Under the pieces are notes generated by a model that was not told the DNA's origin, did no database searches, and saw only the letters and a program-made list of their open reading frames with translations. From Acidobacteriota bacterium (GTDB taxonomy: Bacteria > Acidobacteriota > Terriglobia > Terriglobales > Acidobacteriaceae): a DNA stretch of 58,316 bases. The translations under genes were made by a program, and so were the position numbers. The stretch lies in assembly GCA_021810625.1 (NCBI GenBank), contig JAJZIJ010000016.1, forward strand, positions 1-58,316, read 5' to 3'. Below are positions 1,171 to 33,007 of this stretch, in pieces; positions within the stretch are counted from its first letter, which is position 1; each line of letters begins with the position of its first letter.

Positions 1171-1184
1171 GGATTGGAAGCATT

Positions 1185-1856: not shown

Positions 1857-1907
1857 AATGATTTCAGGGCAATAAAAATTTAGATCGAAAATGAATTGGA
1901 GAAGAAC

Positions 1908-7244: not shown

Positions 7245-7412
7245 CGCGGCATCGCTGGAATACACGCTGCTGGAATTATTGCGGCTGCCGCCGAGAAGAG
7301 CCAACGCGCTCCCGGGACGGGCAGGCAGCCGAAAAGAAACCATACCGGGAACGCGATTGCCGCTTCTGTTCCGAGGAAAAACGGACAGGGAGCGCGGTAC
7401 ACGGAGGTCGTC

Positions 7413-11603
<4,191 letters not shown>

Positions 11604-11634
11604 TTTATGTAGCCACGATAGTTACAAATGCGAC

Positions 11635-11668
11635 GGCGGACTTGAAAAAGTCCGCCCTTGTGTTTGTG
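11635..11668 (+). terminator. Intrinsic terminator of the rplA-rpoC operon
   Basis: GGCGGACTT (11635-11643) and AAGTCCGCC (11648-11656) form a perfect 9-bp GC-rich stem with a GAAA tetraloop. The T-rich tail CTTGTGTTTGTG follows. It begins about 30 bp after the rpoC stop. Confidence 0.85.
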
Positions 11669-11688
11669 TAGGGAATCAGGGGGCAATC

Positions 11689-12231: not shown

Positions 12232-12240
12232 GGGCATGAA

Positions 12241-12495
12241 ATGAATCGATATTTAGTCGTGGCGATTCGCAAGCCAGAGTTTCAACCATCCATCATTGAG
12301 CAACATCAGGCTTTCCTGGATCATTTGAGGCAGCAGGGAAAGATCGAACTGTCCGGCCCTTTTACAGACAAGTCGGGTGGCGCTTACATTGTCAGAGCGG
12401 AGACTTTTCAGGAGGCGCAGTCCTTGGTCTTCAACGATCCCATTCATATTACAAATTCTTCGACTGTGACAGTCTATGAATGGAATGCCAAATAA
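12241..12495 (+). CDS. YciI-like domain protein
   Basis: Small 84-aa protein with the compact ferredoxin-like pattern of YciI/YCII proteins. A YLVVAIRKP strand is followed by HQAFLDHLRQQGKIELSGPF, which contains the family's conserved His and the turn before the second strand. GGAYIVRAETFQEAQSLVFNDP follows in the usual order. The molecular function of most YciI proteins is unknown; some are proposed to act as small hydrolases or dehydrochlorinases. It follows the thioredoxin gene by 9 bp on the same strand. Confidence 0.8.
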   Translation: MNRYLVVAIRKPEFQPSIIEQHQAFLDHLRQQGKIELSGPFTDKSGGAYIVRAETFQEAQSLVFNDPIHITNSSTVTVYEWNAK

Positions 12496-12526
12496 GTTGC
12501 TGATCGATTTTTGCGGGGAATGACGC

Positions 12527-12790
12527 TCAATCTTCTGGCGGAGGGTGCCGTTGCATTTCCCGCGACAGGCGTTCCTCATGGCGGCGACTGGCCTGCTCAA
12601 ACATATTCGTGATGGTGCCGACCAGGCACGTCAGCGCGGAGCCAAGGAAGAAAAATAGCGCCAACATGCGCCACATTTCTCTCTCGTCGGGGAGGCCGGG
12701 TTCATGCGCGCCGCGCGTCCAGGATATGCCGAACGCGACAAGCGCGAAGAGCAGAAAAACTCCGGCGAGAATGTAAAAGTTGCGCGACAT
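12527..12790 (-). CDS. Small two-TM membrane protein of unknown function
   Basis: An 87-aa protein with two predicted membrane helices, residues about 5-22 (FYILAGVFLLFALVAFGIS) and about 42-62 (MLALFFFLGSALTCLVGTI). A short charged linker separates them and the tail is polar and basic. ATG start at 12790. It lies 48 bp downstream of the DinG-type helicase gene on the same strand and could be co-transcribed. No family recognised. Confidence 0.6.
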   Translation of the reverse strand: MSRNFYILAGVFLLFALVAFGISWTRGAHEPGLPDEREMWRMLALFFFLGSALTCLVGTITNMFEQASRRHEERLSREMQRHPPPED

Positions 12791-12838
12791 AACGGGAGCA
12801 AGAAAACTCCTGCCTACAGTGTAGCTGCAAGGCGAGAA

Positions 12839-14839
12839 TTATTTTGTCGTGGGCAGCGTACTGAAAAAATCTTCCACGTCGGACAGCCGTTGCGTCACGC
12901 GATACGGCGGCAGGCTTTCCATAAAGACGCGGCCATAGCGTTGGCGCTGCAAGCGTGGATCGAGCAACACCAGCGCGCCACGGTCGTTGAGTGAGCGAAT
13001 GAGGCGACCAAAACCCTGCTTCAGCGTGAGTACGGCGGTGGGAATCTGATACTCCGCAAAAGGATTGCCGCCGTTGGATTCGATGGCCTTCATCCGCGCT
13101 GAAACCACTGGATCGCTGGGCACGGCGAAGGGAAGTTTGTCGATGATGACACAGCTCAACTGCTCGCCCTGCACATCCACTCCTTGCCAGAAAGAGGAAG
13201 TGCCGAAGAGGACGGCATTCGGTGTGATGCGAAACTCGTCGAGCAGCGCATTGCGCGGCGCGGTGCCCTGCAACAGCAATGGGAAGCCAACCATTGCCAG
13301 CAGGCGCTCGTGTACTTCGCGCATCTGGCTGTAGCTGGTGAAGAGGCAGAAGGCGCGGCCCTGCGTGATCTGGAGCACCTCGCGGATTTTTTCCGCAGCC
13401 GCCTCGGTAAAGCCTGCGTCGCGGGGATCGGGCATCTCCGGCGGTAAATAGAGCAAGGCCTGCTCGCCATAGTGAAAGTGCGAAGGCACGACCAGTTCGC
13501 GTGTGTTGGGGATGCCGAGGCGTCCGCGTAGATGCTCAAAATTACCCTGCACGGTCATGGTGGCCGAGGTGAGCACGACGGAGGGAACGGTCTCGAAGAG
13601 TTGCTCGGTGAGCATGGCGGCAATCTCAATGGGCGTGGCTTGCAGCCAGGTGTTGCGCGCGCTTTGGCGCAGGCCGCCTGCGCTGCGGCGCTCGATCCAG
13701 AAGACGTAGCTGCGGTCTTCAGATTCCAGCAGAAAGGTGAGTTGCTTGAGCAACTCCAGCGCGCGCTTTTTCAGGCCGCTCGCTTCGTCCACGCCGCGCA
13801 GACGGTCGAGTTCTCCCGCCAAACGTTCCAGCATGTTACATACGTCGAGGTACACATCGCCGGAATTCTCCAGAAATTCCTCGCGGTTGGGAAAAGGAAT
13901 GCGACCATCGGCGCTGGCACCGCGTGCCTCCGGCAGCGCGACAAAGAAGAGGCGCGCGCGCTCGCGCAGCAACTGCGCCGCATCGGCCAGACCGGACGAG
14001 AGCGCCTGCTTGGCACGCAGCAAAGACTCCACGTCACGGGCCAGTTCTTCAAAACGCAGATTGCTGATGCTGACGCCGAAGTAGCTGGAGGCGATGTCTT
14101 CGAGTTCATGCGCCTCGTCAAAGATGACAGCGGCGGCCTCTGGCAGAACGCCTGCGTCGGGCGCTCCCTGTGTTTGGTGGCGCAGCGCCATATCTGCGAA
14201 AAAGAGATGATGATTGACGATGACGATGTCGCTTTCGAGTGCGCGACGACGCATTTGCGTAATGAAGCATGGCTCGAAATTCGGGCAGGTGGAACCGAGG
14301 CAGGCATCTGTGCGCGCATCCAGGCGCGTCCAGAGCGGGCTGTTCTCCGGCAACGTGGACAATTCGGCGCGGTCGCCCGATTGGGTGCGCTGCTCCCAAT
14401 CGCGGATGGTCTGGTACTGGTCGATCATTTCCATGCCAGAGAGGATGGGTTGGTCGCGCAGCGCGTAGAGCTTGTGGCGGCACAGGTAATTCGAGCGGCC
14501 TTTCATGTACGTCACGTTCAGCGGGCCAAGCAGCGATTCGAGAAAGGGAATGTCTTTGAAAAAAATCTGTTCCTGCAAATTGCGCGTGCCGGTGGAGATG
14601 ATGACGCGCTGGCCCAGTCGCAGCGCGGGTAGCAGATAGGCGAGCGTCTTGCCGGTACCAGTTCCAGCCTCGACGATCAGATGGCGTTTCTCTGTGAGCG
14701 CGCGCTCGACGGCGCGTGCCATCTCCAACTGGCCGGGTCGATACTCATACGGCAGGCCAGAGGTGGAGAGCATCCCTCCCGGCGCAAAAAAGTTTTGCAG
14801 CGAGGGTAAGGTGCCGGGAGTGAGGGAGTCGTTAGTCAC
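12839..14839 (-). CDS. DinG-type ATP-dependent DNA helicase
   Basis: A 666-aa superfamily 2 helicase of the XPD/DinG branch. Visible motifs are Walker A AGTGTGKT (58-65), the DEAH box (241-244) and four Cys at 120, 180, 185 and 191 with spacing typical of the 4Fe-4S cluster domain. C-terminal motifs include SATM, GTSSFWQGVDVQG and QGFGRLIRS. Such enzymes unwind DNA 5' to 3' and resolve R-loops or forks; the exact role here is inferred. The annotated start is GTG at 14839 because the LPSLQNFFAPGG stretch fits the family N-terminus. An ATG at 14773 with a close GGGAGGG is the alternative. It is divergent from der, with overlapping -10 elements. Confidence 0.9.
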   Translation of the reverse strand: MTNDSLTPGTLPSLQNFFAPGGMLSTSGLPYEYRPGQLEMARAVERALTEKRHLIVEAGTGTGKTLAYLLPALRLGQRVIISTGTRNLQEQIFFKDIPFLESLLGPLNVTYMKGRSNYLCRHKLYALRDQPILSGMEMIDQYQTIRDWEQRTQSGDRAELSTLPENSPLWTRLDARTDACLGSTCPNFEPCFITQMRRRALESDIVIVNHHLFFADMALRHQTQGAPDAGVLPEAAAVIFDEAHELEDIASSYFGVSISNLRFEELARDVESLLRAKQALSSGLADAAQLLRERARLFFVALPEARGASADGRIPFPNREEFLENSGDVYLDVCNMLERLAGELDRLRGVDEASGLKKRALELLKQLTFLLESEDRSYVFWIERRSAGGLRQSARNTWLQATPIEIAAMLTEQLFETVPSVVLTSATMTVQGNFEHLRGRLGIPNTRELVVPSHFHYGEQALLYLPPEMPDPRDAGFTEAAAEKIREVLQITQGRAFCLFTSYSQMREVHERLLAMVGFPLLLQGTAPRNALLDEFRITPNAVLFGTSSFWQGVDVQGEQLSCVIIDKLPFAVPSDPVVSARMKAIESNGGNPFAEYQIPTAVLTLKQGFGRLIRSLNDRGALVLLDPRLQRQRYGRVFMESLPPYRVTQRLSDVEDFFSTLPTTK

Positions 14840-16431: not shown

Positions 16432-16440
16432 CTTCCTCGT

Positions 16441-16467
16441 CCCACCCTTTGCGATGCAAAGGATGGG
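16441..16467. repeat. REP-like hairpin after der
   Basis: CCCACCCTTTGC (16441-16452) and GCAAAGGATGGG (16456-16467) flank a GAT loop. The stem has one C-A mismatch as plus-strand RNA but is fully paired with a G-U wobble as minus-strand RNA. There is no T-run on either side. The same architecture recurs at 45609-45635, suggesting a dispersed repeat that here sits between convergent genes. Confidence 0.6.
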
Positions 16468-16489
16468 ATTCCCGACAGTTGCTCTACTT

Positions 16490-17590
16490 TTAGATTGTCG
16501 TTGTGTTCATCGACATCGAAGACGCTTTCGTTCTTTGGAGTGTATTTCGCACTACGTCCTGATATTCTTCCTTGATTTGGTAATTGTCCTTTATCTGCCC
16601 ATGCCTTTCTCCACCATCAAATTTGATGATCTGGCGTAGATGTGTGTTCTTTGGCTTGGTCAAAAATTGGGACAAGTTGCTCAAGAACCTTCCTGCTTGC
16701 CCAATGTCCCTGCCGATTCCACAATTCAGCAAGGCTTCTTTCACTTCTTCACGCCCAAATGCACGATCCTCTGAGAGTAATATCTCAAGGAATTTCAAGA
16801 GACGAGGTGTCAGGGCTGAATCACTTTGGTTTAGCGTCTTCAAAAGCCGCTCAGACAACCCTTCTGGCGAAAGATTCTCCACTGCGAGTGAAAACACTGT
16901 ACGTTCATGCTCTGGGTTTTTTCGTTGTACCTGCTCCTTCGCCTCTTTGCGTGTCGTATAATCCTCTGCCTCTGGAAGCGGAATGATGACCTCAGGGTTG
17001 ATGAAGAGTGTTCCATCATCATCTACAAAGCACTGAAATCGGATACATCTTATGTCAACCCCATACTCCCGAAGCCACAAAACAGAAGAAATGATATAGG
17101 GATGGAACTCACCAGCCAATAAAATGATCCTCTGATCCTGGTTGACAGCGCTCAGGTCTTCGTCCACGAGTTCCTCATCGATAAACTCCTTAATGCGTAG
17201 TCGGGCGCTATCTGTACCGATATTTTCCCGTTTTGCTAGGAGATCACTTAATTGATCTACCGTTAGGTTCGAGCAGTATGATGCATACTTTACTGCCTGC
17301 CAGTCGATGTTATCCCCTGATTTATCACGCTTTAGTTCAATGATGACTAAGTTGGCATCGGTGTCGAGTGCAAGAATGTCAATCCGAAGGTCGCTTGGCA
17401 GCGTATATTCAGTTTGCAAGACCAACAAATCTTCGCCGAGTACATCCGGGGAATCAGCGATCCACTTCTCCAGATCGAAACGTTCGCGCAGACCTTGCTC
17501 TGTGAGCGAAGTTTTTGTCAGTTTCGTAAGCTGATCCTGATTATTGTTTCTATCCAATTTATACATTGGGTCAGTTCCTTTGATGTCCAT
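16490..17590 (-). CDS. NucS/DUF91-like PD-(D/E)XK nuclease-domain protein
   Basis: A 366-aa protein whose residues about 38-105 match the PD-(D/E)XK core seen in NucS/DUF91 proteins: E41 in the DLEKWI helix, D71 in LRIDILALD, E85 and K87 in VIIELKRDK, and Q98/Y102 in the QAVKYASY helix. The remaining 260 residues are not recognised. The gene is visibly AT-richer than its neighbours, which suggests horizontal acquisition. Its ATG (17588-17590) directly abuts the trmFO stop with no spacer, so it probably relies on translational coupling to trmFO. The family cuts DNA at mismatches or acts in restriction-like defence; which applies here is unknown. Confidence 0.75.
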   Translation of the reverse strand: MDIKGTDPMYKLDRNNNQDQLTKLTKTSLTEQGLRERFDLEKWIADSPDVLGEDLLVLQTEYTLPSDLRIDILALDTDANLVIIELKRDKSGDNIDWQAVKYASYCSNLTVDQLSDLLAKRENIGTDSARLRIKEFIDEELVDEDLSAVNQDQRIILLAGEFHPYIISSVLWLREYGVDIRCIRFQCFVDDDGTLFINPEVIIPLPEAEDYTTRKEAKEQVQRKNPEHERTVFSLAVENLSPEGLSERLLKTLNQSDSALTPRLLKFLEILLSEDRAFGREEVKEALLNCGIGRDIGQAGRFLSNLSQFLTKPKNTHLRQIIKFDGGERHGQIKDNYQIKEEYQDVVRNTLQRTKASSMSMNTTTI

Positions 17591-18949
17591 TTAACCACAC
17601 TGGATAGCAGGCAACGATGCTTGCTCCTGTTGCCACCATCTGTCGAGCTCAGCTAGTGCGCGTTCGCATTGCAGGCGATGGCGTTCTTTCTTGTCGCGGA
17701 CTCTGCGCCGCGTCTCCTCGTCGAGCGGCTCCAGCAGATCAAAGGTGATGTTGGCTGGCTGAAAATGTTTCGGATCGGCGTGGGTGATGTAATGCACCAG
17801 CGATCCCAGGCCGCTGCCACGCGGCAAAGGCTCCGGCGTTTTGCCGTGGGCCAGCGCGGCGGCAAAAATTCCCGCCATCATGCCGCTGGCGATGGATTCG
17901 GTGTAGCCTTCAACGCCGGAGAGTTGTCCGGCGAAAAAAATCGTTGGATGCGCGCGCAGTTGCAGGGCCTCATTCAATAGCGTGGGCGCGTTGATGTAGG
18001 TGTTGCGATGGATTTGCCCATAGCGCAGAAACTTTGCATTCTCCAGGCCGGGAATCAGGCGCAGCACGCGAGCCTGCTCGCTGTACTTCATGTGATTTTG
18101 AAATCCCACCAGATTATAGGCATCGGCGCGTAAGTTCTCGCTGCGGAGCTGCACCACGGCGTGCGGAGTTTTTCCTGTGCGCGGGTCGCGCAGGCCGACC
18201 GGCTTCATGGGGCCAAAGCGCGGGGTGTCGCGCCCACGGCGGGCAAGCTCCTCAATGGGCAGGCAGCTTTCAAAGTAATTCAGTTTCTCCCACTCCTTCT
18301 GCGTGGCGGGTTCGGCGGAGATCAAAGCATCGTAGAAGCGGTCGTACTCCTCGCGTGTCATCGGGCAATTGATGTAATCCGCCGTACCTTTGTCCCAGCG
18401 CGCCGCCATGTAGACGCGCTCGCGGTCGATGGAGTCTGCCTCGACGATGGGGCTGATGGAATCGTAGAAGGCGAGATGCTCGCTGCCCGTGAGTGCGGCG
18501 ATGGAAGCCGAAAGCGCGGGCGAAGTGAGCGGGCCAGTGGCCAGAATGGTGATGCCGTCGGTGGGGTCAAGGGTCGTGACCTCTTCGCGATGGACGATGA
18601 TGTTGGGTTCGGCGGCAATGGCTGCGGCGACAAGGCGGGAGAACTCGGCGCGATCGACGGCCAGCGCGTGTCCGGCGGGCACGGCGCTCCGATCCGCAGC
18701 GGCCAGCAGCGCGGAGTGGGCGCGACGCATCTCCTGCTTCAGCAGCCAGGGCGCGGTATTCTCGCTCTCCGATTTCAGCGAGTTGGAGCAGACCAACTCA
18801 GCGAAGTCGGCGGTCTGGTGGGCCTCTGTGGAGCGCACTGGGCGCATCTCGTAAAGATCAACGTGACAGCCCCGGCGAGCGGCTTGCAGTGCGGCCTCCG
18901 GGCCAGCGAGTCCGGCTCCTAAAACACGAATGTTGGGATGTAAGGCCAT
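17591..18949 (-). CDS. trmFO: tRNA uracil-54 C5-methyltransferase (folate/FAD-dependent) TrmFO
   Basis: A 452-aa flavoprotein that uses methylenetetrahydrofolate and FADH2 to make ribothymidine at tRNA position 54. The FAD-binding GAGLAGPEAA (11-20) lies at the N-terminus. The family-specific EMRPVRSTEAHQTADFAELV and VCSNSLKSE segments follow, then FESCLPIEELARRG and the C-terminal GQLSGVEGYTESIASG. Length is normal. It is transcribed divergently from waaA with about 70 bp between starts. A TTTACG-18 bp-GATAAT promoter candidate places the transcription start at or next to the ATG, so the mRNA may be leaderless. The downstream nuclease gene begins exactly at its stop. Confidence 0.96.
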   Translation of the reverse strand: MALHPNIRVLGAGLAGPEAALQAARRGCHVDLYEMRPVRSTEAHQTADFAELVCSNSLKSESENTAPWLLKQEMRRAHSALLAAADRSAVPAGHALAVDRAEFSRLVAAAIAAEPNIIVHREEVTTLDPTDGITILATGPLTSPALSASIAALTGSEHLAFYDSISPIVEADSIDRERVYMAARWDKGTADYINCPMTREEYDRFYDALISAEPATQKEWEKLNYFESCLPIEELARRGRDTPRFGPMKPVGLRDPRTGKTPHAVVQLRSENLRADAYNLVGFQNHMKYSEQARVLRLIPGLENAKFLRYGQIHRNTYINAPTLLNEALQLRAHPTIFFAGQLSGVEGYTESIASGMMAGIFAAALAHGKTPEPLPRGSGLGSLVHYITHADPKHFQPANITFDLLEPLDEETRRRVRDKKERHRLQCERALAELDRWWQQEQASLPAIQCG

Positions 18950-23032: not shown

Positions 23033-23821
23033 ATGCAAACACGGAGGGGTCGTCTGCTGAATCGAAAATTTTTCCTCGCGCTTCTGCTTGGATGTGCCGT
23101 CGCGGGCGGGCATAGCGCTGCGGCGCAGATGTCCAACATGCCGCCTCCGCAGCTCGCAATCCCACAACAGCAAACTCTGAGCTATAGCGTGGATTGGCGC
23201 GTCTTTCCCGCTGGCACGGCCACCTTTCATCTTCAGGCAGATGGAAATCGGGAACATGTGCGCGCCACGGCTGCTTCGGTGGGCGCGGTGTCTCTGTTGT
23301 TTCCTGTTTCCGACCGATACGATGGTGTCTTTGATCGTACAACGGGATGCTCGTATGAATATCAGAAGCAGATACAGGAAGGATATCGTCGTCTAACCGG
23401 GCAACTGAAGATGGATTACGCGCAGCATGAACAAATTCTGAGCGAGAAAAATCTTGGCAACGGAATTTCCAAGCAACTCTCTGCGCCGATTCCCGGATGC
23501 GTGACCGATGTGTTGTCTGGAATTTTTTATCTGGCTTCGCAACAACTGCAAGTGGGGCACGATGCCACCTTCCCCTTGGCCGATGGCGGGCATGTGGTTG
23601 CCGTGACCGCCAAGGTGGAGGCGCGGGAGCAGGTCATTACGCCCGCGGGCACCTTTGCAACCGTGCGCGTCCAGCCCACCGCCGATGCTGGCGTGGTAAA
23701 AAATCGCGGCAATATATGGATTTGGTACACGGATGATGCGCGACATCTTCCGGTGCAGGTGCGCGCGCACCTCTTTTGGGGAACCATTACGATGCGACTG
23801 ACCCGCGTGACGGGACAGTAG
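23033..23821 (+). CDS. Exported DUF3108-like protein
   Basis: A 262-aa protein with a signal peptide (hydrophobic stretch 13-27, cleavage likely after HSAAAQ) and a beta-rich body. The body matches DUF3108-type proteins: LSYSVDWRVFPAGTATFHL, then DRYDGVFDRTTGCSYEY, a central DVLSGIFYLASQQLQVG and the late NIWIWYTDDARHLPVQVRAH. Such proteins are periplasmic or outer-membrane associated and of unknown function. It lies 7 bp after the ICMT-like gene and is the last gene of the envelope operon. Confidence 0.8.
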   Translation: MQTRRGRLLNRKFFLALLLGCAVAGGHSAAAQMSNMPPPQLAIPQQQTLSYSVDWRVFPAGTATFHLQADGNREHVRATAASVGAVSLLFPVSDRYDGVFDRTTGCSYEYQKQIQEGYRRLTGQLKMDYAQHEQILSEKNLGNGISKQLSAPIPGCVTDVLSGIFYLASQQLQVGHDATFPLADGGHVVAVTAKVEAREQVITPAGTFATVRVQPTADAGVVKNRGNIWIWYTDDARHLPVQVRAHLFWGTITMRLTRVTGQ

Positions 23822-23931
23822 GCATAACATGCTGGCCATGTAGATTGAGCGCATGCTATCAAGTTGGGTACCGATGACAACAGATGGAGGCGTGGATAGT
23901 GTACAGTGAGAGTGTCTGCCGTGAGAGGTAT

Positions 23932-24306
23932 ATGAGATTCCCGACAAATTGGCCGCAGGGATGCCCTCCACAGGATGCGAGTGATGCCGAAGGTTGCTTC
24001 TATCGTTGTGTTGAATCGTCCCCGCCGACCGAAGTTGATTTTAAGTCGGCAGCCGAACTTGGAAGATGCCCCACAGCGCCAGCGTGTCAAAGGGTTGGGC
24101 TATCATTGCTCCCGACAGTGGAAGATGCCAAACATCAGATGCAGCTTTTTCCGGCGAAGAATAAATACATCGCTGAAGGCAAATTGTAGCCTAGGCATGG
24201 GAAGATAAAGAAAACTCCAAGCGCTAAGCAGCCCAAGCATTACACTTGGTGGCCGTTTGAAGATGTGAAACGAGAAGAAATGTTTATCGTGTGTGAGCCA
24301 CAATGA
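23932..24306 (+). pseudogene. Small gene interrupted by one in-frame amber codon
   Basis: The reading frame from ATG 23932 (GAGAGG at 23923-23928) runs 85 codons to TAG at 24187-24189. It then continues open in the same frame for 38 more codons to TGA at 24304-24306. The last four bases (ATGA) overlap the start of the next gene, which argues that the true stop is 24306. The part before the amber (FPTNWPQGCPPQDA, DFKSAAELG, CQRVGLSLLPTVEDA) and the part after it (HGKIKKTPS, HYTWWPFEDV) read as one conserved small-protein pattern. A single change at one codon (such as GAG to TAG) would explain it. Function unknown. It could be a pseudogene, a sequencing error, or a readthrough gene. Confidence 0.65.
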
Positions 24307-25472
24307 ATTGGGAAATGCCAGGAGAAAAAGACGAAATACTCTATCTGGAGCAGATAGCCCCAGATAGTGTGCTTTATGACTTCGATGGCCCGCGTATATT
24401 TACCTTGAAAAGTAAAGCTGGGCTACTCCTTGCTTATCTGTGTGATGAGGATGAAAACTCATCACGTTTTGTGCTGGCTCCTACTTCTGATCGCGTTGTT
24501 AGCGATCTGGAGTCGGGCAATCAATCAGTTCGCGATGCGCTAGATCAACCTTGGATATGGATAGCCGATGTTGACAGTACGGGTAAACCGACTTCTATTA
24601 CGCGTAGCCAGATTAACGAATTACCTCCTGAATGCCTTCCAGGTAGAGATGTAATGTTGCTCCCGCATCTTCAGCCGATTCTTAGTATTAGGATGATTGG
24701 CAAGGAACTACATCAGGGAAGTATTCCGTCTAGTGTAATTAAGCAAGCTATTGATGGTGTCTCTACTGCGTTGAAGCGGATCGCAGAGCTATCGCAGGGC
24801 ACACAGGGGTCAGGTCGGCCAGAAAATTCCATTCGCTGGTTCTCTGATTTGTCAGCTCAACACTTTGGATTCGCAAGTTTTGAAATTTCTTTCCGCGAGC
24901 CGAGTATGTCTCAAATGCCCATATCATTTGCTGGCGATGGAAGTATTCATGAGCGACTTCATGATATTGGATTACGGTTGAAAGAAGCTCTTGATTGGGC
25001 GACGCTAGATACAGAGGGAGACAAGGATATAGACCTTGACCTTCTCAAGGCTCTTGAACGCCTTGTACCTCAACAAACGGGAGTTGTGGAAGAGGTTGAA
25101 ATTAAGGGAAGACTACTAGCAGGGCGACTTGAAGATTCCGGTTATAAGCTCACGCGCAAGATTTCAAAAAGAGTTAGATTGAAGCTATCCGCCGAGCGGG
25201 ATCAACAAGAGGAAATCGTGGTAATTTCAGGAGTGATCCGAGAGTTCGATAAGGATAAGCTACAATTTACCCTCCGTGAAACAGACGATGAGAAGGATAG
25301 GATTTGTTCGATTGAAAACGATCTTTACGATCAAGTCATGGAACTTTTCTCAGAGGATAGTCTGCGCGTAACGCTGTCGGGGAGAGAGTTGAAACGGGCA
25401 GGGAAAATGGAAGTTTCTGTTATTTCCGGACAAGTGCTCAAAGGAGAGATTACTCCGAATCCGGAAGTGTAA
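24303..25472 (+). CDS. Unknown protein, partner of the amber-interrupted gene
   Basis: A 389-aa soluble protein, clearly AT-richer than the flanking waaA and comEC regions. The N-terminal 60-70 residues (ILYLEQIAPDSVLYDFDGPR, then LLLAYLCDED and SRFVLAPTS) resemble from memory a domain catalogued as DUF6575; this is unverified. Residues about 250-385 are beta-rich with charged turns (EEIVVISGVIREFDKDKLQF). No catalytic motif, signal peptide or membrane segment is seen. The start overlaps the upstream interrupted gene by ATGA, so the two form a coupled pair. Pairing of a small and a larger AT-rich gene between housekeeping operons suggests a mobile cassette, possibly defence or toxin-antitoxin-like (inference only). 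Confidence 0.7.
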   Translation: MNWEMPGEKDEILYLEQIAPDSVLYDFDGPRIFTLKSKAGLLLAYLCDEDENSSRFVLAPTSDRVVSDLESGNQSVRDALDQPWIWIADVDSTGKPTSITRSQINELPPECLPGRDVMLLPHLQPILSIRMIGKELHQGSIPSSVIKQAIDGVSTALKRIAELSQGTQGSGRPENSIRWFSDLSAQHFGFASFEISFREPSMSQMPISFAGDGSIHERLHDIGLRLKEALDWATLDTEGDKDIDLDLLKALERLVPQQTGVVEEVEIKGRLLAGRLEDSGYKLTRKISKRVRLKLSAERDQQEEIVVISGVIREFDKDKLQFTLRETDDEKDRICSIENDLYDQVMELFSEDSLRVTLSGRELKRAGKMEVSVISGQVLKGEITPNPEV

Positions 25473-25558
25473 AAAACGTCTATACACGAAGAAAATATCA
25501 ATTCTGACTACAGTTTGATATCGTGATTGGCCAATCTATTAAAAAAACTCAATAGGCA

Positions 25559-28312
25559 TTATTCTGAGCTTTGCGGCACTTCTTCCGGCTGCACCGTGTT
25601 TCCATTCAACAGAAATGTGCTTAGGCCCAGCGTGTCTGTGCGATACACGCGCACATGCGCTGCGGCCAGCGCGTCCAGAACCGATACGCGAGGATGTCCG
25701 AAGGGATTGTGCCGTCCGGCGGAGATGACAGCATACGACGGCGCGACGGCGGCCAGAAATGCGGGCGTGGTGCTGGTGCTGCTGCCATGATGCCCCACTT
25801 TCAACAGCGCAGTGGACGGGATTCCATTGGCAACCATGTTTTGTTCGCTGGGCGCTTCCGCATCGCCTTCGAGCATCACTGCGGTTTGCCCGTATGCCAT
25901 GCGCAGCACCAGAGAGTCGTCATTGGAGGGCTGATCTCCCGGCGCGTAGCCTGCTGCGGGTGCCAGCACGCGAACTTGCGTATCTCCGAAGGGAAACTGC
26001 TGGCCCGCGTGCCAGCTTTCAACGGCGATTCCGTTGGCTTTGGCTGTCGCCAATAATGCGCGGTACGCTGGCACCAGAGGATTGTTTCCCACCCACAAGG
26101 CATGAGGTCGAAAATTTTCCAGCACGGCGGGCATTCCACCCATGTGGTCGCTGTGCGCGTGCGTAAGGGCCACATCGTCCAGGCGGCGAATGTGGCGCGA
26201 CCAGAGATATTGCGAGACCACATCCTCACCCACGTCAAAATTGTTTTCTGTTGATGTGCCAGCGCCAATGGGGCCGCCTGCATCAATCAGCAGCGTGTGT
26301 CCATCCGGAGTGGCGATGAAAATCGAATCGCCCTGGCCAACATCCAGCGCTGTTACTTCCAATACGCCGGGGTGCAGGTCGGGCCGCTGCGGAAGGATGA
26401 TGCAAATGGAGCCAGCGAGGATGAGCGCGAGGCCCGCAACTCTCCAGCGCGGCGCAGCGCGTACCATCCACAACGCCAGTATCCATACGGCCAGAAAGCA
26501 CACGACTGCCCAGACCGGAGGGTCGGGAATGCGCGCGCCAACGGAGGAAAATGTATTGAAAATTCCGACAAGGCCAGTGATGGCGTGCAAGAGAAGCGCA
26601 GTGAGCGCGGCAAAGGGAAGGGCCAGCGCGGTCGCAAGGCATCCCAGCAGAAAGGTGAGCAGTGCCAGCGGCAGCAGGATGCCGAGCAAGGGCAGGCCCA
26701 GCAGATTCGCAGGCAGCGCAAAGAGCGTGAGGCGATGAAAGTAGATGGCCATTGGCAGAATCATGGCCATCTCGACGACGAAGGATACGATTAGAGCTTC
26801 AGCAACGAGCAGCGTCCAGCGCGACAGTGTAACGGGCAGGCGCATGGCCCAACGTTTTCCTGTCAGCGGTCGCAGATGCTCGCTCCACAGTCGCAGCGAG
26901 ACACGCATCTGCGTGATGCGCGGCGGCAGATGCGGATCGAGGCCAGTCAGTTGGATCGTGCGCAGGCCGCGCAGATATGGCCCAACCGTAGCCTCAATGA
27001 ATGGCGCGGCGATGCCAGCGATGGAGAAGACGGCGAGAAATGTCATTTGAAAGCTGGCATCGAAGAGCGCCGAGGGAGTGCGTATCAGCACGCCGAGCGC
27101 GGCAATCGCGATGGCATTCATGGCGGCGCGCTCGCGGTAGAGGATGCGGCAGAGCAGATATACGCCGCTCAACCAAAGCGCGCGCTGCACTGGCGGAGCG
27201 AAGCCCGTGAGCACGGCGTAGGGCAACGCTGCGCAGAGCGCGATGGCGGTTGCGGAAATCTCTCCCATCCCTGCCTTGCGGGCGATCCAGAAAAACAGCG
27301 CAATCACGATGGTGACGTGCAGGCCGGAGACAACCAACAAATGAAAGGAACCCGTGCGTTCAAAGCTGCTGCGCAGCGCATGGCGTAGATGACTGCGGTC
27401 GCCAAACAGCATGGCGCGCAAGATGTCGCTGTCATTCTTTTGTAGCCGCAGTGATGCAGGCAGCCACGCCAGTGTTGCGCTGCGCCTGGCGATGCGCTCC
27501 AGCCGCGTGCCTGCCCACATCTGCGCGGCGGTGGCAAAGCATGGCAAAGAAAACGCGCGCGCCGCAGGCAGAATTGTGATCTCCGCTGCGTTCGCGCTGT
27601 CCAGAACATCCACGCCATGCTGGCGCAGATAGGCGGGGTAATCCCAGGCTCCGGGATCGAGATAATACTCTGGCGCGTACATGCGCGTGGTGACGCGGAT
27701 GCGCGCGCCGCAGGCGAACGACGGCAACGCTTCCCCAAGCTTTGCATGGATGGAGAGACGCAGACCTCCGTGAATTGGAATCTGCGCATCGTGGTTGCGG
27801 GTGAAGTCTTCCACCGAGTCCAGAGCCAGATCGACCTGCGTAGTTGTCTCTGTTTGCTGCGCCGACTGGAAGGATTCGTTGTGGGTGATGGTTTTTTCTG
27901 GATGCAGCGCGACGATGGTGCCGATCACCTCGCGTTGCAGCCTGTCAGCTAAGCGCAGCAATTGCGGAGATGCGGCGTGCGTGGGAGCCACGTAGACGGA
28001 AAACTGTCCAACGGAAATCCAGACCAGAAGCAGCGGCAGGAACAAGATGCGTTCCGCAGCGCGGCAGGCGGCGAGTGTCAACAGAGCGCCGAGCGCGGCG
28101 GCAAGCAGTGCAAACAGCGGCGGGTGCCAGACCCAACGCGCATCGAGAATTCCAAGAGAAAAACCGACAACGGCCAGCAGCATGGGCGCGGCGGCAAAGT
28201 TGAGCGGAGCGCGCAGCGCATGGCGGCGCGTAGCGCGCAAGGGTGCTGGCCGATAGCCACGCGGTGAGCGCGTGGCCGCAGGCATCGCCGTGGAGGAGTC
28301 GGAGATGACCAT
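25559..28312 (-). CDS. comEC: ComEC/Rec2-family DNA uptake channel
   Basis: A polytopic protein of about 917 aa from ATG 28312. It has the three-part ComEC layout: an N-terminal membrane and OB-like DUF4131 region, a central Competence domain starting near DILRAMLFGDRSHL and SGLHVTIVIALFFW, and a C-terminal metallo-beta-lactamase domain. The C-terminal domain carries DVGQGDSIFIATPDGHTLLI, the metal site THAHSDHMGG (near residues 715-725) and LKVGHHGSSTSTT. ComEC imports single-stranded DNA during transformation. The reading frame extends upstream into the methyltransferase gene, but ATG 28312 (20 bp after that gene) gives a normal N-terminus. Last gene of the nadC operon. Confidence 0.93.
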   Translation of the reverse strand: MVISDSSTAMPAATRSPRGYRPAPLRATRRHALRAPLNFAAAPMLLAVVGFSLGILDARWVWHPPLFALLAAALGALLTLAACRAAERILFLPLLLVWISVGQFSVYVAPTHAASPQLLRLADRLQREVIGTIVALHPEKTITHNESFQSAQQTETTTQVDLALDSVEDFTRNHDAQIPIHGGLRLSIHAKLGEALPSFACGARIRVTTRMYAPEYYLDPGAWDYPAYLRQHGVDVLDSANAAEITILPAARAFSLPCFATAAQMWAGTRLERIARRSATLAWLPASLRLQKNDSDILRAMLFGDRSHLRHALRSSFERTGSFHLLVVSGLHVTIVIALFFWIARKAGMGEISATAIALCAALPYAVLTGFAPPVQRALWLSGVYLLCRILYRERAAMNAIAIAALGVLIRTPSALFDASFQMTFLAVFSIAGIAAPFIEATVGPYLRGLRTIQLTGLDPHLPPRITQMRVSLRLWSEHLRPLTGKRWAMRLPVTLSRWTLLVAEALIVSFVVEMAMILPMAIYFHRLTLFALPANLLGLPLLGILLPLALLTFLLGCLATALALPFAALTALLLHAITGLVGIFNTFSSVGARIPDPPVWAVVCFLAVWILALWMVRAAPRWRVAGLALILAGSICIILPQRPDLHPGVLEVTALDVGQGDSIFIATPDGHTLLIDAGGPIGAGTSTENNFDVGEDVVSQYLWSRHIRRLDDVALTHAHSDHMGGMPAVLENFRPHALWVGNNPLVPAYRALLATAKANGIAVESWHAGQQFPFGDTQVRVLAPAAGYAPGDQPSNDDSLVLRMAYGQTAVMLEGDAEAPSEQNMVANGIPSTALLKVGHHGSSTSTTPAFLAAVAPSYAVISAGRHNPFGHPRVSVLDALAAAHVRVYRTDTLGLSTFLLNGNTVQPEEVPQSSE

Positions 28313-28332
28313 AGCAAACCGATGCTGCTGAA

Positions 28333-29661
28333 TTATCGCACCAGTGTGGCGACCGTTTCCTGATGGTAGGTTTGCGGAAACATATCCACTATGTGCAGAC
28401 GATCCAGACGGTAGCCGGATTCTATCAGTGCCTTCAAGTCTCGCGATAGCGTGACCGGATCGCAGGAGACATAAACGATGCGTCGTGGGCGACATCGCGC
28501 CAGCAAATTCACACCTTTCATGCCGAGACCTGCGCGTGGCGGATCGAGAATGGCGAGGTCAGGAGAAACGCGGCGCTCGTCGAGAGCATGTTGTAGGAAG
28601 CTTTCCGTTGTTGTCGCAACGACGGTGGCCGGCAAGCCTGCAAGATTGTGTCGCAAATCTTCCACGGCAGCAGGAGCTATCTCCACCGCAGTTACATGCG
28701 AAAAACTTTCTGTCAGCACGCGGGCAAAGAGTCCAACTCCGGAGTATAAATCCCATGCCTGCTGGCCGCGCTCACCTTCTGTGACCAGCGTGACGAAGGC
28801 GGCCAGCAACGAAGCATTGACTTGAAAAAATGCGCCGAGGCTGATGCGATAGCTGTACGCGCCCACGCGATAATGCAGGCTTTGCGTCTTCCAACGCAGC
28901 AAGGTCTGCGCCTCTGGTGAAACGTTGCGGCCTGTGCCGCGTTGTAGAAGAGTAGCTCCAGCCAGCTCTGGAACCTGTGCAGCCAGGGCAGTAAAGAAGG
29001 TCTCGCTATGCGCTCGAAGCAGAGGATCGTCCTGCAATGTGAAGGCGCGAAGCAGGATTGTTGGCGTGTTGGGATTCGCAAACAGTTCAATCTCATGGAT
29101 GCCTTCGGAAATGGCCCCAGCTTCGCCAAGAGCGCGGAGCGTGTCCAGGCAGCGTTCGAGCAGAGGCGTAACGATGGAGCATTGTGCAATGGGGACAAGG
29201 ATGTGCGCGTGTTGCTCACGATATCCGATGGCGAAGTTGGGTTGCGCTTGCAGGTGCAATCGCATTCGATTGCGATAGGCGAGGGGATCGCCGCATAGAG
29301 CAGAAATTTCTGGAAGGTGTTGCAAGCCAGCGCGTTCCAGCGTCTCGCGCAGCACGCTGCGTTTGATCTCCACCTGCCCAACATACGTTGCGTGTTGCAG
29401 ATGGCAGCCGCCGCAGCGAGTGAAATGCGGGCACGCGGGCTGCGCGCGCAGCGGGGATGCTTTCTCCACATGCAGCAAATGCCCAGACGCATGTCTGCGA
29501 TGACTTTGTCCATGCGTCGATGGGAGAAGATCGACGGAGACCTGCTCGCCGGGGAGCGTGAACGGGACAAAGATGCGTTTGCCAGCCTGCGTGCCTTCCG
29601 ACTCTGGAATGCGCGCCAGTCCCTGGCCGCCGTAGATAATTTTTTCAATCGCGAGCTTCAT
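28333..29661 (-). CDS. RumA/TrmA-type 23S rRNA (uracil-5-)-methyltransferase
   Basis: A 442-aa SAM-dependent RNA uracil-C5 methyltransferase. An N-terminal TRAM-like region precedes the iron-sulfur Cys C77, C83, C86 (CPHFTRCGGC) and C161, matching RumA spacing. The SAM site is AWDLYSGVGLFARVL, followed by LDPPRAG, the nucleophile in VSCDP (C400) and the general base E435 in HQETVATL. These features fit RlmD/RumA better than TrmA, but the target base (U1939 or U747 class) cannot be fixed by eye. ATG 29661 overlaps the stop of the upstream unknown gene. Confidence 0.9.
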   Translation of the reverse strand: MKLAIEKIIYGGQGLARIPESEGTQAGKRIFVPFTLPGEQVSVDLLPSTHGQSHRRHASGHLLHVEKASPLRAQPACPHFTRCGGCHLQHATYVGQVEIKRSVLRETLERAGLQHLPEISALCGDPLAYRNRMRLHLQAQPNFAIGYREQHAHILVPIAQCSIVTPLLERCLDTLRALGEAGAISEGIHEIELFANPNTPTILLRAFTLQDDPLLRAHSETFFTALAAQVPELAGATLLQRGTGRNVSPEAQTLLRWKTQSLHYRVGAYSYRISLGAFFQVNASLLAAFVTLVTEGERGQQAWDLYSGVGLFARVLTESFSHVTAVEIAPAAVEDLRHNLAGLPATVVATTTESFLQHALDERRVSPDLAILDPPRAGLGMKGVNLLARCRPRRIVYVSCDPVTLSRDLKALIESGYRLDRLHIVDMFPQTYHQETVATLVR

Positions 29662-30398
29662 TGCTGGGCCATATAAAAAAGACTGAGACGCGGAATATGC
29701 AGCCTTTCAAAAAGTTGGCGGCGTAGAAATTGCTGCTCAATCTGCCGAATTTGCGCGACCTGCAATCGACTGCGATAGGGAGCCAGTTCCCGCGTGGATT
29801 GCTCGCGCAACGCAACAAGCATCTCTTCCGGGGCCGCAGTCGTCAGCAAGGAAAAAAGCTTGTCCTCCAGCACGAGAAGATTTTGCTCCAGAGATTCCAT
29901 CGCGGGATGTTCCGGGGCGCGGTTGTCTGCGGCCTGTAAATTTTCTGAAAGCTGCTGTGCCGCGAGTTCTTCGAGTCGGCTGGAGATTTCATTGGCGTTG
30001 GCGCGGATGGCCTCTGGAACCTCTGCGCCGCGCAACTGCGCAGCCGTTGCTTGCAGATGGAGCGCGACGCGTTCGCCTTCAAAACCACTTTCTTCGTTTC
30101 GTGGATGGGTTGCGCGTGGCGCTCCGGTCGCGGCCTCGTGCATGTCTTCGACGGCGCGCAATACTTCCTGCGCGCAATAAGCAAGGCCGTTGATGCGGCG
30201 CGCGCGCGCCTTTCCTTTACGCGCATCATGTTTGTCGAAGGTGGCATCGATGCCGCGCAGCACGGCTTCCAGCGGAAAGCCCGCCTCCTGCCAGGTGGCA
30301 ATCAGCGCCCAATCCAGCGGCGAGAGCAGGAGCAGCGAGCCACGCCGACGCTGAAAGTGCTCTTCGATCTCCGTAAAGTAATTGAAGTAGTTCTGCAA
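29658..30398 (-). CDS. Conserved-looking unknown protein in the coaX-comEC operon
   Basis: A 246-aa soluble, Ala/Glu/Arg-rich, mostly helical protein, starting at TTG 30398 (opens MQNYFNYFTEIEEHFQRRRG). The first 60 residues, including SPLDWALIATWQEAGFPLEAVLRGIDATFD, look like a compact helical domain. Residues about 130-215 have coiled-coil-like heptads. No family recognised. It overlaps the downstream methyltransferase gene by 4 bp and lies 10 bp after coaX, so it is embedded in the operon and expressed with it. Confidence 0.7.
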   Translation of the reverse strand: MQNYFNYFTEIEEHFQRRRGSLLLLSPLDWALIATWQEAGFPLEAVLRGIDATFDKHDARKGKARARRINGLAYCAQEVLRAVEDMHEAATGAPRATHPRNEESGFEGERVALHLQATAAQLRGAEVPEAIRANANEISSRLEELAAQQLSENLQAADNRAPEHPAMESLEQNLLVLEDKLFSLLTTAAPEEMLVALREQSTRELAPYRSRLQVAQIRQIEQQFLRRQLFERLHIPRLSLFYMAQQ

Positions 30399-30408
30399 GG
30401 CTGTCTGC

Positions 30409-31221
30409 TTACACTTCTTTTGCCGCGTGTTCTTTGCGCGGGCGCTTGTGCGGGGAATGATTCCGCTCGTAGACCAGGCGCAGGCCGTCGAGCGTCAACC
30501 AGTCATCCACTGTGGTAATAAAGCGCGAGTCCGGCGCAATCTGCGTGGCCAGGCCGCCGGTTGCGACGACGTGCGTCTTCTCGCCAAGCTCCAGGATCAT
30601 GCGCTCTAAAATGCCGTCAATCAAACCGAGGTAGCCGTAATACAGGCCAATCTGCAAGGTCTCGATGGTGTTGGCGCCGATCACTTTTTCCGGACGGCGA
30701 ATGTCCACGCGCATCAGCCGCGCAGCCCGCGAAAACAGCGCATCTGCGGAGATGCCCAGGCCCGGCGCAATGGCTCCGCCGAGAAATTCTCCCTGCTTTG
30801 AAATCACATCAAACGAGGTTGCGGTGCCGAGATCGACCACGATACATGGCCCACCGTATTTGTGAAAGGCGGCCACGGAGTTGACGATGCGATCCGCGCC
30901 CACCTCCGCCGGATTGTCGGTGCGAATGGAAATGCCGGTCTTCACGCCGGGTTCCACGAAGAGTGGTTGATGGCCAAAATAGTGTTTGCACATTTCTCGA
31001 ACTGTGGAGTCGATGGGCGGCACGACGGAGGAGACGATGATGGCATCGACGGCAGAGACCTCAATGCCGCGCAGAGAGAAAAGATTGCGAAAGAGTACGC
31101 CGTATTCGTCCACCGTCTGCGCGCGATGCGTGGTCAACCGCCAGTCTGCAATGCGCTCGCCAGTTTCGCTGAAGAGTCCGAGAACGGTGTTGGTATTGCC
31201 GATGTCGATGGCTAATAACAT
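30409..31221 (-). CDS. coaX: Type III pantothenate kinase
   Basis: CoaX (270 aa) phosphorylates pantothenate in the first step of coenzyme A synthesis. The ASKHA-fold phosphate motif DIGNTN (6-11) opens the protein. VVDLGTATSFDVISKQGEFL and GGAIAPGLGISADALFSRAARL follow in family order, and ATGGLA lies near the C-terminus. The ATG at 31221 has GGGTGGG upstream. It lies 26 bp after birA and 10 bp before the unknown gene, inside the vitamin and cofactor operon. Confidence 0.97.
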   Translation of the reverse strand: MLLAIDIGNTNTVLGLFSETGERIADWRLTTHRAQTVDEYGVLFRNLFSLRGIEVSAVDAIIVSSVVPPIDSTVREMCKHYFGHQPLFVEPGVKTGISIRTDNPAEVGADRIVNSVAAFHKYGGPCIVVDLGTATSFDVISKQGEFLGGAIAPGLGISADALFSRAARLMRVDIRRPEKVIGANTIETLQIGLYYGYLGLIDGILERMILELGEKTHVVATGGLATQIAPDSRFITTVDDWLTLDGLRLVYERNHSPHKRPRKEHAAKEV

Positions 31222-31247
31222 GATCCCACCCTGATCCTGATTGTCGT

Positions 31248-32048
31248 TTATTTTTTTGCTTCGCGCACACCGCCGGAGATCACCGTGTGCAGGCCGTCTG
31301 CGGCGCGTACCTGTAGAAAGCCCCGCGCATCCAGTCCTGCGGTAACGCCCGTGTATCCACCAGCTTCTTCGACGCGGACGTATTTCCCTTCAATCCATGT
31401 GGATGTTTTCGCGATGCGCTCCAAAATGCTGCGACTGGCTGAGGCAATGCCGCCGGGCGCAAGCAGCGCAGTGATCTCCGCGTGCATGGCTGTCATGAGC
31501 GCGGCAAATAATGTTTCGCGCGGCCAGGTACATCCCGATGCGATGCGGAGCGAGGTGGCCAGATCGCGCAGTTCCGGTGGAAACTCCGTGTGGTTTACGT
31601 TGATGCCGATCCCAATGACGACAGCGCGCGCGTGTGTGGCCCCCGCGTTCATCTCAGCCAGGATGCCGCAGAATTTTCTCCCATCCAGCAGAAGATCGTT
31701 GGGCCAGCGAATGTCGGCGATTAACGCGGTGGTCTGCTGCACGGCGCGTTGCACGGCCAGTCCCGTAGCCAGCGAAAGCCACAGCGCATCGGCAGGAGCC
31801 AGTGCCGTGGGTGGGCGCAGCAGCAGGCTGCAATAGAGGCCAGCGCCGGGTTCGGAGTGCCAGGAGTGCGCGCCGCGCCCACGCCCGGCGGTCTGCTCCT
31901 CGGCCAAATAGATGGTGCCGTGCGGAGCGCCTTCGGCAGCCTCGCGCATGGCCTGGAGGTTCGTGGAGTCGAGCGTGGAAAAATAACGCAGCTTGTCTGC
32001 AAAGAGCGTGGCATCCAATGCGCGTGTGTATGCGTCCTGGGTTTCCAT
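31248..32048 (-). CDS. birA: Biotin-[acetyl-CoA-carboxylase] ligase
   Basis: A 266-aa biotin protein ligase that biotinylates the BCCP subunit of acetyl-CoA carboxylase. Catalytic-domain motifs are YFSTLDSTNLQAM, EEQTAGRGRGAHSWHSEPGA (about 51-70) and the lysine-containing KFCGILAEM region. There is no N-terminal helix-turn-helix, so this is a monofunctional (class I) enzyme and not a biotin repressor. It sits 12 bp after nadC. Confidence 0.94.
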   Translation of the reverse strand: METQDAYTRALDATLFADKLRYFSTLDSTNLQAMREAAEGAPHGTIYLAEEQTAGRGRGAHSWHSEPGAGLYCSLLLRPPTALAPADALWLSLATGLAVQRAVQQTTALIADIRWPNDLLLDGRKFCGILAEMNAGATHARAVVIGIGINVNHTEFPPELRDLATSLRIASGCTWPRETLFAALMTAMHAEITALLAPGGIASASRSILERIAKTSTWIEGKYVRVEEAGGYTGVTAGLDARGFLQVRAADGLHTVISGGVREAKK

Positions 32049-32060
32049 GAATCTGCGTGC

Positions 32061-32948
32061 TCAGTAGATATCCGAGGTGATGCGCATACTCAGATCGACG
32101 GCGGGAACGGAGTGCGTCAGCGCGCCGACGGAAATATAATTCACTCCCGCCTTGGCGTACTTGCGCACGGTTTCCAGCGTCATGCCGCCGGAGGCTTCAA
32201 TGGGTATCTTCGCGTCGCGCTCGCGGACAATTTTCACGGCGCGGCGTACCTCGGCTGGCTTCATGTTGTCGAGCAGCAGGGAATCGGCTCCGCCATCAAG
32301 AGCCTGCGCCAATTCCTCCGCCGTGCGAACCTCGACCTGAATTTTCTGTCCCGCTTTGCGCAACGAACGCGCGCGCGCCAGCGCCTTGGCCAGGCCGCCA
32401 CCCAGTGAGATGTGATTGTTTTTGATGAGCACGCCATCGGCCAGATCCATGCGATGGTTGGCGCCGCCGCCGCAGGTGACAGCGTATTTATCCAGCAGGC
32501 GCAGGCCGGGAACGGTTTTGCGCGTGTCAAGAATAACCGCGCCAGTGCCTTGCACGGCATCGACGTACTGGCGCGTCAGCGTGGCGATGCCGCACATGCG
32601 TTGCAGCAGATTCAGAATAACGCGCTCGCAGGCCAGAATGGCGCGCGCATTGTGACGGATGACGGCGACAGCCTGCCCTTTGTGGACGCGCACGCCGTCG
32701 AAGATTTCCGAGTGCGAAATGACATCAAAGCGACGCGCAGGCTTGCCCGTGTCGAGATGCGCGAAAATATGGAGTACACGCGGAACCAGCCCCAGCCCGG
32801 CCAGAACGCAATCCTGCTTGGCCAGAATGGTGGCCGAGGCGGGCAGGTCTGGGTCAATGGTCAGAGCGGTGGTTGCGTCGGCGGTGACGTGATCTTCGAG
32901 GAGCGCCTGCTCCAGAATTGCGGTGGCGCGCTTGCTTTTCCAGTCCAT
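32061..32948 (-). CDS. nadC: Nicotinate-nucleotide pyrophosphorylase (quinolinate phosphoribosyltransferase)
   Basis: NadC (295 aa) converts quinolinate and PRPP to nicotinate mononucleotide in de novo NAD synthesis. Family landmarks include ERVILNLLQRMCGIATLTRQ, DTRKTVPGLRLLDKYAVTCG, HRMDLADGVLIKNNH and, near the end, IEASGGMTLETVRKYAKAGV with YISVGALTHS. First gene of the six-gene minus-strand operon nadC-birA-coaX-unknown-methyltransferase-comEC. A possible -10 (TATAGT, minus strand 32990-32985) lies 37 bp before the ATG. Confidence 0.97.
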   Translation of the reverse strand: MDWKSKRATAILEQALLEDHVTADATTALTIDPDLPASATILAKQDCVLAGLGLVPRVLHIFAHLDTGKPARRFDVISHSEIFDGVRVHKGQAVAVIRHNARAILACERVILNLLQRMCGIATLTRQYVDAVQGTGAVILDTRKTVPGLRLLDKYAVTCGGGANHRMDLADGVLIKNNHISLGGGLAKALARARSLRKAGQKIQVEVRTAEELAQALDGGADSLLLDNMKPAEVRRAVKIVRERDAKIPIEASGGMTLETVRKYAKAGVNYISVGALTHSVPAVDLSMRITSDIY

Positions 32949-33007
32949 AATGTTTGCTCTTCAATCTGTTCGCGGTCAAAAGTTACTATAGCGTAAAAAG
33001 ACGAGGT

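What the first reader, a model, noticed from the sequence alone, without database searches (positions are those of the whole stretch)
23932..25472. Coupled two-gene cassette whose first gene carries one in-frame amber codon
The frame from 23932 stays open for 123 sense codons except for TAG at 24187, and its final stop overlaps the next gene's ATG by 4 bases. Sequence on both sides of the TAG reads as one coherent small protein (CPPQDA, CQRVGLS, then HYTWWPFEDV). The overlapping 389-aa partner is unknown and AT-rich. A two-gene AT-rich cassette between envelope and competence operons is a good candidate for an undescribed mobile, defence or toxin-antitoxin-like system. The amber could be a pseudogenising mutation, an error, or programmed readthrough.
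Basis: partly seen in the sequence, partly recalled or inferred. Interest (0 to 1): 0.75.

Follow-up and report, generated by a model that had tools for sequence, protein, structure and literature searches.

The report
Phage-defence gene pair with broken antitoxin
A small imported pair of genes, related to a known bacterial phage-defence toxin-antitoxin system, carries a premature stop in the antitoxin gene while the partner looks intact, and its relatives show the same two-part switch beside or joined to very different defence enzymes.

Summary
Gene A (23932-24306) is open except for TAG at 24187-24189 and overlaps gene B (24303-25472, 389 aa) by ATGA. A profile built without the window matches both halves of A: 83.5 bits before the TAG and 36.2 bits (E 3e-10) after it. 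All 30 aligned relatives have a sense codon at the TAG column.

The pair is a diverged relative of PD-T4-10, an abortive-infection toxin-antitoxin system of E. coli (A antitoxin; B toxin, DUF6575). All 29 relatives found by A alone are followed directly by a B-family gene. A sister genome lacks 23812-25583: a recent insertion.

Best reading of the TAG: a nonsense mutation that breaks A and may also lower B translation. No CTA-anticodon tRNA among the 42 tRNAs found and no second A. B shows no decay (51 of 59 conserved columns kept). Sequencing error is not excluded.

The larger point: A-DUF6575 also sits before DEAD and SNF2 helicases and DNA methyltransferases, and A is predicted to have an ADP-ribosyltransferase-like fold. 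Both are new as far as I searched; neither is tested.

The parts
23812..25583 (.). inserted cassette, absent from the sister genome G396 (same genus), which has 46 nt instead
   Evidence: blastn of window against L070: 18151-23811 = 1-5687 (90%), 25584-32949 = 5734-13099 (91%); no direct repeat found at the borders
23932..24306 (+). gene A, PD-T4-10_A-like putative antitoxin, 123 sense codons, interrupted by an amber codon
24187..24189 (+). in-frame TAG; a sense codon in 30 of 30 aligned relatives
24190..24306 (+). post-amber part of A with the conserved G..T..H.TWW motif
   Evidence: 36.2 bits, E 3.1e-10 against a profile without the window
24303..25472 (+). gene B, DUF6575-type putative toxin/effector, 389 aa, intact frame
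   Evidence: PD-T4-10_B 25.9 bits over residues 21-120; PF20215 24.0 bits, just under its cut-off of 26.6; alignments A7, A9
25197..25442 (+). predicted OB-fold C-terminal domain of B (model residues about 299-380)
   Evidence: AlphaFold2 model; VIA-align Z 10.7 SilF, 10.0 PriB, about 9 SSB

Best explanation
The cassette is a horizontally acquired, diverged relative of the PD-T4-10 toxin-antitoxin defence system. A is the antitoxin-type partner, encoded first. B is the toxin/effector: a DUF6575 domain at the N terminus and a predicted OB-fold domain at the C terminus that may touch nucleic acid. In an intact copy A would hold B inactive, probably through the DUF6575 domain, and phage infection would release B to stop the cell. 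In this genome a nonsense codon in A removes the last three predicted strands, including the conserved H..WW motif. B starts inside A's stop codon and has a weak ribosome-binding site, so early termination may lower B translation too, leaving a silenced, recently disabled cassette. Shown: the family, the adjacency, the insertion, the stop, the intact B frame. Inferred: antitoxin and toxin roles here, coupling, silencing, phage trigger.
For: PADLOC PD-T4-10_A matches 27 of 30 A relatives (best E 4.7e-10; L007 A 20.6 bits); window A is 48% identical to L007 A. PD-T4-10_B matches window B and 12 of 24 B proteins including it, PF20215 19 of 24 at E up to 0.01. In PMC9519451 PD-T4-10B is toxic, A neutralises it, A cannot be deleted and the ORFs overlap (passages read). 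Adjacency: 29 of 29 loci found by A alone have a B-family gene directly downstream (B identity by alignment A7, profile A9, or Pfam). The A-B gap is -4 in 17 of the 30 loci measured. A and B distances agree, r 0.94 over 23 pairs, 0 of 2000 permutations (relatedness of the sequences is not removed). Empty site in the sister genome. Phage or integrase context in L007, L026, L018, L075, L076. No second A in G000. B keeps 51 of 59 columns invariant in three other lineages (0.86), against 0.82, 0.67 and 0.67 for those lineages tested the same way.
Against: The window's own A, read through, gives no Pfam or PADLOC match; its membership rests on relatives. B's DUF6575 score is under the curated cut-off, its PD-T4-10_B match covers about 100 of 353 profile positions, and its C terminus is unlike the E. 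coli-type B. Toxicity and neutralisation are untested for this branch. If B is active and translated, loss of A should be harmful, yet B is not decayed. The silencing idea is weak: B's site (-2.1 kcal/mol) is not unusual, as 6 of 19 other window genes are as weak or weaker, and many relatives with the same overlap have strong B sites, to -12.9.
Confidence: 0.6

Rival explanations
1. The TAG is a base-calling or consensus error, or a minority variant in the sampled population; the cassette is intact and working.
For: Frame, length and conserved motifs are otherwise intact on both sides; B is undecayed; loss of an antitoxin beside an intact toxin is the unexpected direction. G000 is a draft of 74 contigs.
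Against: I noticed no other broken long gene in the window, but did not test for it systematically. A single substitution error is rare in assemblies (recalled). No reads or second genome of the species were available.
Confidence: 0.24
2. Programmed or leaky amber readthrough makes full-length A, with the stop setting the antitoxin dose.
For: The column carries ten different residues in 30 relatives, so almost any inserted residue would probably be accepted. A stays in frame and conserved after the TAG. Readthrough would reconcile a conserved A tail with an intact B.
Against: No tRNA with anticodon CTA among the 42 tRNAs found in G000 (tRNA-Trp was not among them, so the list is incomplete). 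TAG is an ordinary stop: it ends 9 of 36 long ORFs. No relative has a stop there (0 of 30).
Confidence: 0.05
3. The 85-aa product is a natural, functional short A and the downstream codons are relics.
For: None found beyond the presence of the stop.
Against: 0 of 30 aligned relatives end there. The truncation removes strands 96-100, 109-114 and 124-128 of a confident model of a relative (pLDDT 91), with 4 of the family's 8 invariant columns.
Confidence: 0.06

Closest known systems
PD-T4-10 (PD-T4-10A/B, E. coli; Vassallo et al. 2022, PMC9519451)
   Same: Two overlapping genes, small A first, B with DUF6575; the A and B families match the PADLOC models, A only through relatives. Related pairs sit among phage genes in E. 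coli and Rahnella.
   Different: Window B matches PD-T4-10_B only over residues 21-120 and ends in a predicted OB fold; A carries an amber; the cassette sits between bacterial genes (DUF3108 and ComEC-type) in what I infer is an acidobacterium (same phylum as Thermoanaerobaculia genomes).
PDC-M32A (PADLOC phage defence candidate)
   Same: Weak match to window B residues 281-360 (21.7 and 18.3 bits), around the OB-fold part.
   Different: No PDC-M32 partner was found in the cassette; I saw the name only in PADLOC and in two passages of PMC12429752.
RES, Tpt1/KptA and other ADP-ribosyltransferase-fold proteins
   Same: The A model resembles this superfamily: 49 of the 50 solved structures listed (Z 4.8-7.5); Foldseek's top hit is a RES protein.
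   Different: No sequence-profile link to RES or KptA (hhalign probability 0.1%, the same as two unrelated controls); no glutamate is conserved in A.

Membership tests
PD-T4-10 | two-gene operon, overlapping ORFs, small A before B | tested here: met
   ATGA overlap at 24303-24306; same order in 29 of 29 relatives found by A
PD-T4-10 | A matches the PD-T4-10_A family | tested here: inconclusive
   window A read through: no match at E up to 10; 27 of 30 relatives match; window A aligns to relatives over both halves
PD-T4-10 | B matches PD-T4-10_B / DUF6575 | tested here: inconclusive
   PD-T4-10_B 25.9 bits, E 1.5e-6, but only profile positions 20-121 of 353; PF20215 24.0 bits, below cut-off 26.6
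PD-T4-10 | intact antitoxin gene | tested here: not met
   TAG at 24187
PD-T4-10 | B toxic, A neutralises; abortive infection against T-even phages | not testable with these tools
   reported for the E. coli system only
ADP-ribosyltransferase superfamily (gene A) | ART-like fold | tested here: inconclusive
   49 of 50 listed PDB rows are ART-fold proteins by my own knowledge of the names, one (2aua) has no known function; many rows are repeats of a few proteins; Z 4.8-7.5, below the tool's caution line of 8; Foldseek best E 0.25; the viral library gave no confident match, best E 0.015 to an uncharacterised protein
ADP-ribosyltransferase superfamily (gene A) | recognisable sequence profile | tested here: inconclusive
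   no link to RES (19 sequences) or KptA (3 sequences) by hhalign; no PDB sequence match better than E 1.3

The most novel reading that the evidence does not exclude
A plus DUF6575 is a general control module of bacterial defence. A is an ADP-ribosyltransferase-fold protein without a conserved glutamate that serves as an antitoxin or sensor by holding the DUF6575 domain, and evolution has joined DUF6575 to unrelated effectors: OB-fold toxins, a DEAD helicase beside a type IIG restriction enzyme, an SNF2 helicase beside a type III methyltransferase, a DUF1156 DNA methyltransferase, and, as a neighbour, a methyltransferase-HNH protein. PD-T4-10 would be one case of a wider switch.
Probability: 0.4. 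Interest if true: 0.7.

Novelty: new variant of a known kind. Interest (0 to 1): 0.48.

Why it matters
In the held library PD-T4-10 is described in one E. coli study, in which neither protein had a predicted function. The relatives found here place its antitoxin family in nine phyla by record titles, suggest a fold for it, and show the same A-DUF6575 pair in front of helicases and DNA methyltransferases. If A controls those enzymes as it does the toxin, one experiment on A would explain several defence systems. The window adds a natural case in which the antitoxin gene is broken while the partner gene survives.

Tried and rejected
Searches that led nowhere. B alone found no relative in genome contigs, plasmids, phages or the 296 other genomes searched in the phylum. 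A relative's A and another relative's B found nothing in phages. The A and B profiles have no useful PDB sequence match. A paper search on antitoxins of ADP-ribosyltransferase fold gave nothing to the point among the 15 papers listed of 281 (listing only).

Considered and rejected. A short natural A (0 of 30 relatives end there). Suppressor tRNA. A second, complementing A in the genome (one search found one match only). A transposon with terminal repeats (no border repeats found). The repeat finder pair that includes the TAG (24170-24193 with 25256-25279, 79%) is probably chance; not followed. Promoter-like and terminator-like sites do not exceed shuffles. A sequence link of A to RES or KptA.

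Rows dropped. L022 (G343), an 18-bit match in a 711-aa ORF, was judged spurious. L019, L020, L021 are the same loci as L034, L037, L038 and were not counted twice; L023 and L025 duplicate L026 and L007. L048 has only the end of A; L046's A has a stop of its own; L038 is nearly identical to L037; these three were left out of A6, so '30 of 30 sense codons' does not include them. L005 and L006 were found through DUF6575 and are not in the 29 of 29; nor are L075, L076 and L128. One of the 20 RES loci (L145, a partial match) was not used.

Full report
1. The observation. The coordinates are right. The frame from 23932 has 123 sense codons and one TAG at 24187, and its stop overlaps the ATG of a 389-aa gene (ATGA, 24303-24306). 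A profile built from 25 relatives, without the window, finds both halves: 83.5 bits (E 6.9e-25) before the TAG and 36.2 bits (E 3.1e-10) after it, profile positions 3-91 and 94-125, while the next best six-frame stretch of the window has 7.8 bits. The TAG interrupts one gene.

2. What the pair is. Window B has weak matches to Pfam DUF6575 (24.0 bits, cut-off 26.6) and PADLOC PD-T4-10_B (25.9 bits, residues 21-120). PF20215 matches in 3 of 396 genomes searched in the phylum, two of them over its cut-off: the window's own, G163 and G386. In both others the gene directly upstream is a homologue of A, open through the amber column. The A of G163 matches PD-T4-10_A (29.8 bits). PD-T4-10 is a two-gene system in which B is toxic, A neutralises it and B is needed for protection from T4 (passages of PMC9519451).

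3. Relatives. Searches with A in viral contigs, plasmids and genome contigs gave 29 distinct loci (L007, L008, L016-L018, L024, L026, L027-L048). In 29 of 29 a B-family gene follows, at -58 to +10 bases by the longest start and -17 to +10 by the nearest start. B was recognised by alignment A7 in 21 of them, by the A9 profile in seven more (L008, L028, L029, L033, L041, L045, L048) and by Pfam in L038 (18.3 bits, below cut-off). By record titles the A loci come from Pseudomonadota, Planctomycetota, Acidobacteriota, Verrucomicrobiota, Lentisphaerota, Chloroflexota, Binatia, Actinomycetota and Cyanobacteriota; the phylum names are partly my reading of those titles, and most are metagenome bins. 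The nearest are L007, L024, L026, L027 and L028 (47-52% identity to window A). In L007 and L026 the pair lies between a phage integrase and a glycosyl hydrolase 108 (endolysin-type) gene. In Rahnella and two E. coli strains it lies among phage genes near lysis genes. A and B distances agree, r 0.94 over 23 pairs, 0 of 2000 permutations, relatedness not removed. The reverse test, DUF6575 without A, is mostly but not always negative: on plasmids, Oscillatoria, Rhodococcus, Rahnella and Arthrobacter have A (the last unannotated, 33.7 bits), while a Mycobacteroides abscessus plasmid has a lone 134-aa DUF6575 protein and no A in the 10.3 kb around it.

4. The insertion. A genome of the same genus (G396) matches the window at 90-91% on both sides and lacks 23812-25583, with 46 nt instead. 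No border repeat was found. The cassette holds no mobility gene that I could see. Its GC of 46-50% is below most of the surroundings.

5. The amber. The column is a sense codon in 30 of 30 aligned relatives, with ten different residues. Among 42 tRNAs found in the genome none has anticodon CTA; tRNA-Trp was not among them, so the list is not complete. TAG is the stop of 9 of 36 long ORFs of the window. A search of the genome with the A1 profile found only this copy. In the AlphaFold2 model of L007's A (pLDDT 91.3, pTM 0.84) the truncation would remove strands 96-100, 109-114 and 124-128. B shows no decay: of columns invariant in three other lineages it keeps 51 of 59 (0.86), against 51 of 62, 51 of 76 and 51 of 76 for those lineages tested the same way. 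B's Shine-Dalgarno energy is -2.1 kcal/mol, A's -5.2. With the ATGA overlap this suggests that B may depend on ribosomes finishing A, so that a stop in A would lower B as well, which would explain how a cell can lose the antitoxin. This is an inference with results against it: 6 of 19 other window genes have a site as weak or weaker, and many relatives with the same overlap have strong B sites. Disruption is seen elsewhere: L046 has a stop in A with an intact B, L028 a frameshift in B with an intact A, and L048 only the end of A.

6. Folds. A resembles ADP-ribosyltransferase-fold proteins: 49 of the 50 rows shown are of that superfamily by my recognition of their names (tRNA 2'-phosphotransferase Tpt1/KptA Z 7.5, rmsd 3.3 over 93 residues; Scabin, RES, ParT and others lower), one (2aua) is of unknown function. 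The rows repeat a few proteins, Foldseek's best E is only 0.25, Z stays under 8, the viral library gave nothing confident, and no sequence-profile link to RES or KptA exists, so this is a lead. No glutamate is conserved in A. The B model is moderate (pLDDT 78, pTM 0.53); residues about 299-380 form an OB fold (SilF Z 10.7, PriB 10.0). The DUF6575 part was barely tested by that search.

7. A wider module. Behind A, DUF6575 is joined to different partners: a DEAD helicase beside an MmeI-type restriction enzyme and a GIY-YIG-type (T5orf172/MUG113) protein (L005), an SNF2 helicase followed by DUF4391 and a type III methyltransferase (L006), a DUF1156 DNA methyltransferase (L041 fused; L045 split). 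Or it stands alone, in L033 before a DNA methyltransferase-HNH protein. Paper searches for the names found DUF6575 and PD-T4-10 only in PMC9519451 of the held library; most subscription papers and all bioRxiv preprints are missing from it, so novelty of the module reading is provisional.

8. Verdict. The window holds a diverged PD-T4-10-like cassette with a broken antitoxin gene, probably by a recent nonsense mutation. The amber itself is most likely ordinary. The family it led to is the interesting part. On checking, I lowered confidence in the best explanation slightly (0.62 to 0.60) and raised the error reading (0.22 to 0.24), because the silencing step is weaker than first written.

Noticed in passing
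window 16433-17657: A second AT-rich insertion 6 kb away: a 366-aa NucS_C-like nuclease gene (16490-17590, GC 45%, PF01939 26.1 bits) is also absent from the sister genome G396, which has 175 nt instead.
   Followed up: partly
L041 6389-9730 and L045 5412-9704: DUF6575 is fused to a DUF1156 DNA methyltransferase in one Dehalococcoidia genome and split from it in another, where the DUF6575 gene ends in TAG nine bases before the methyltransferase ATG; L045 also has a second DUF6575-like ORF upstream (5412-5930, 26.0 bits, just under cut-off).
   Followed up: partly
L033 6141-8135: A and a stand-alone DUF6575 gene are followed by a DNA methyltransferase-HNH nuclease fusion.
   Followed up: partly
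L046 5980-6354: A of a Binatia genome has a stop (TGA) in the same region, by eye from two compensating frameshifts, with an intact B.
   Followed up: partly
L028 6341-7314: B is frameshifted near 6855 while A is intact, the direction expected for a toxin-antitoxin pair.
   Followed up: partly
L128 4630-4956: An unannotated A homologue lies directly upstream of an annotated DUF6575 gene on an Arthrobacter plasmid.
   Followed up: yes
L129 4944-5348: A lone DUF6575 protein without A among small genes of a Mycobacteroides abscessus plasmid.
   Followed up: partly
L075, L076: E. coli strains carry A-DUF6575 pairs among phage genes; DNA similarity to the Rahnella pair was found in 11 of 5426 E. 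coli genomes, over 75% of the query in 3 and 11% in 8; I looked at two.
   Followed up: partly
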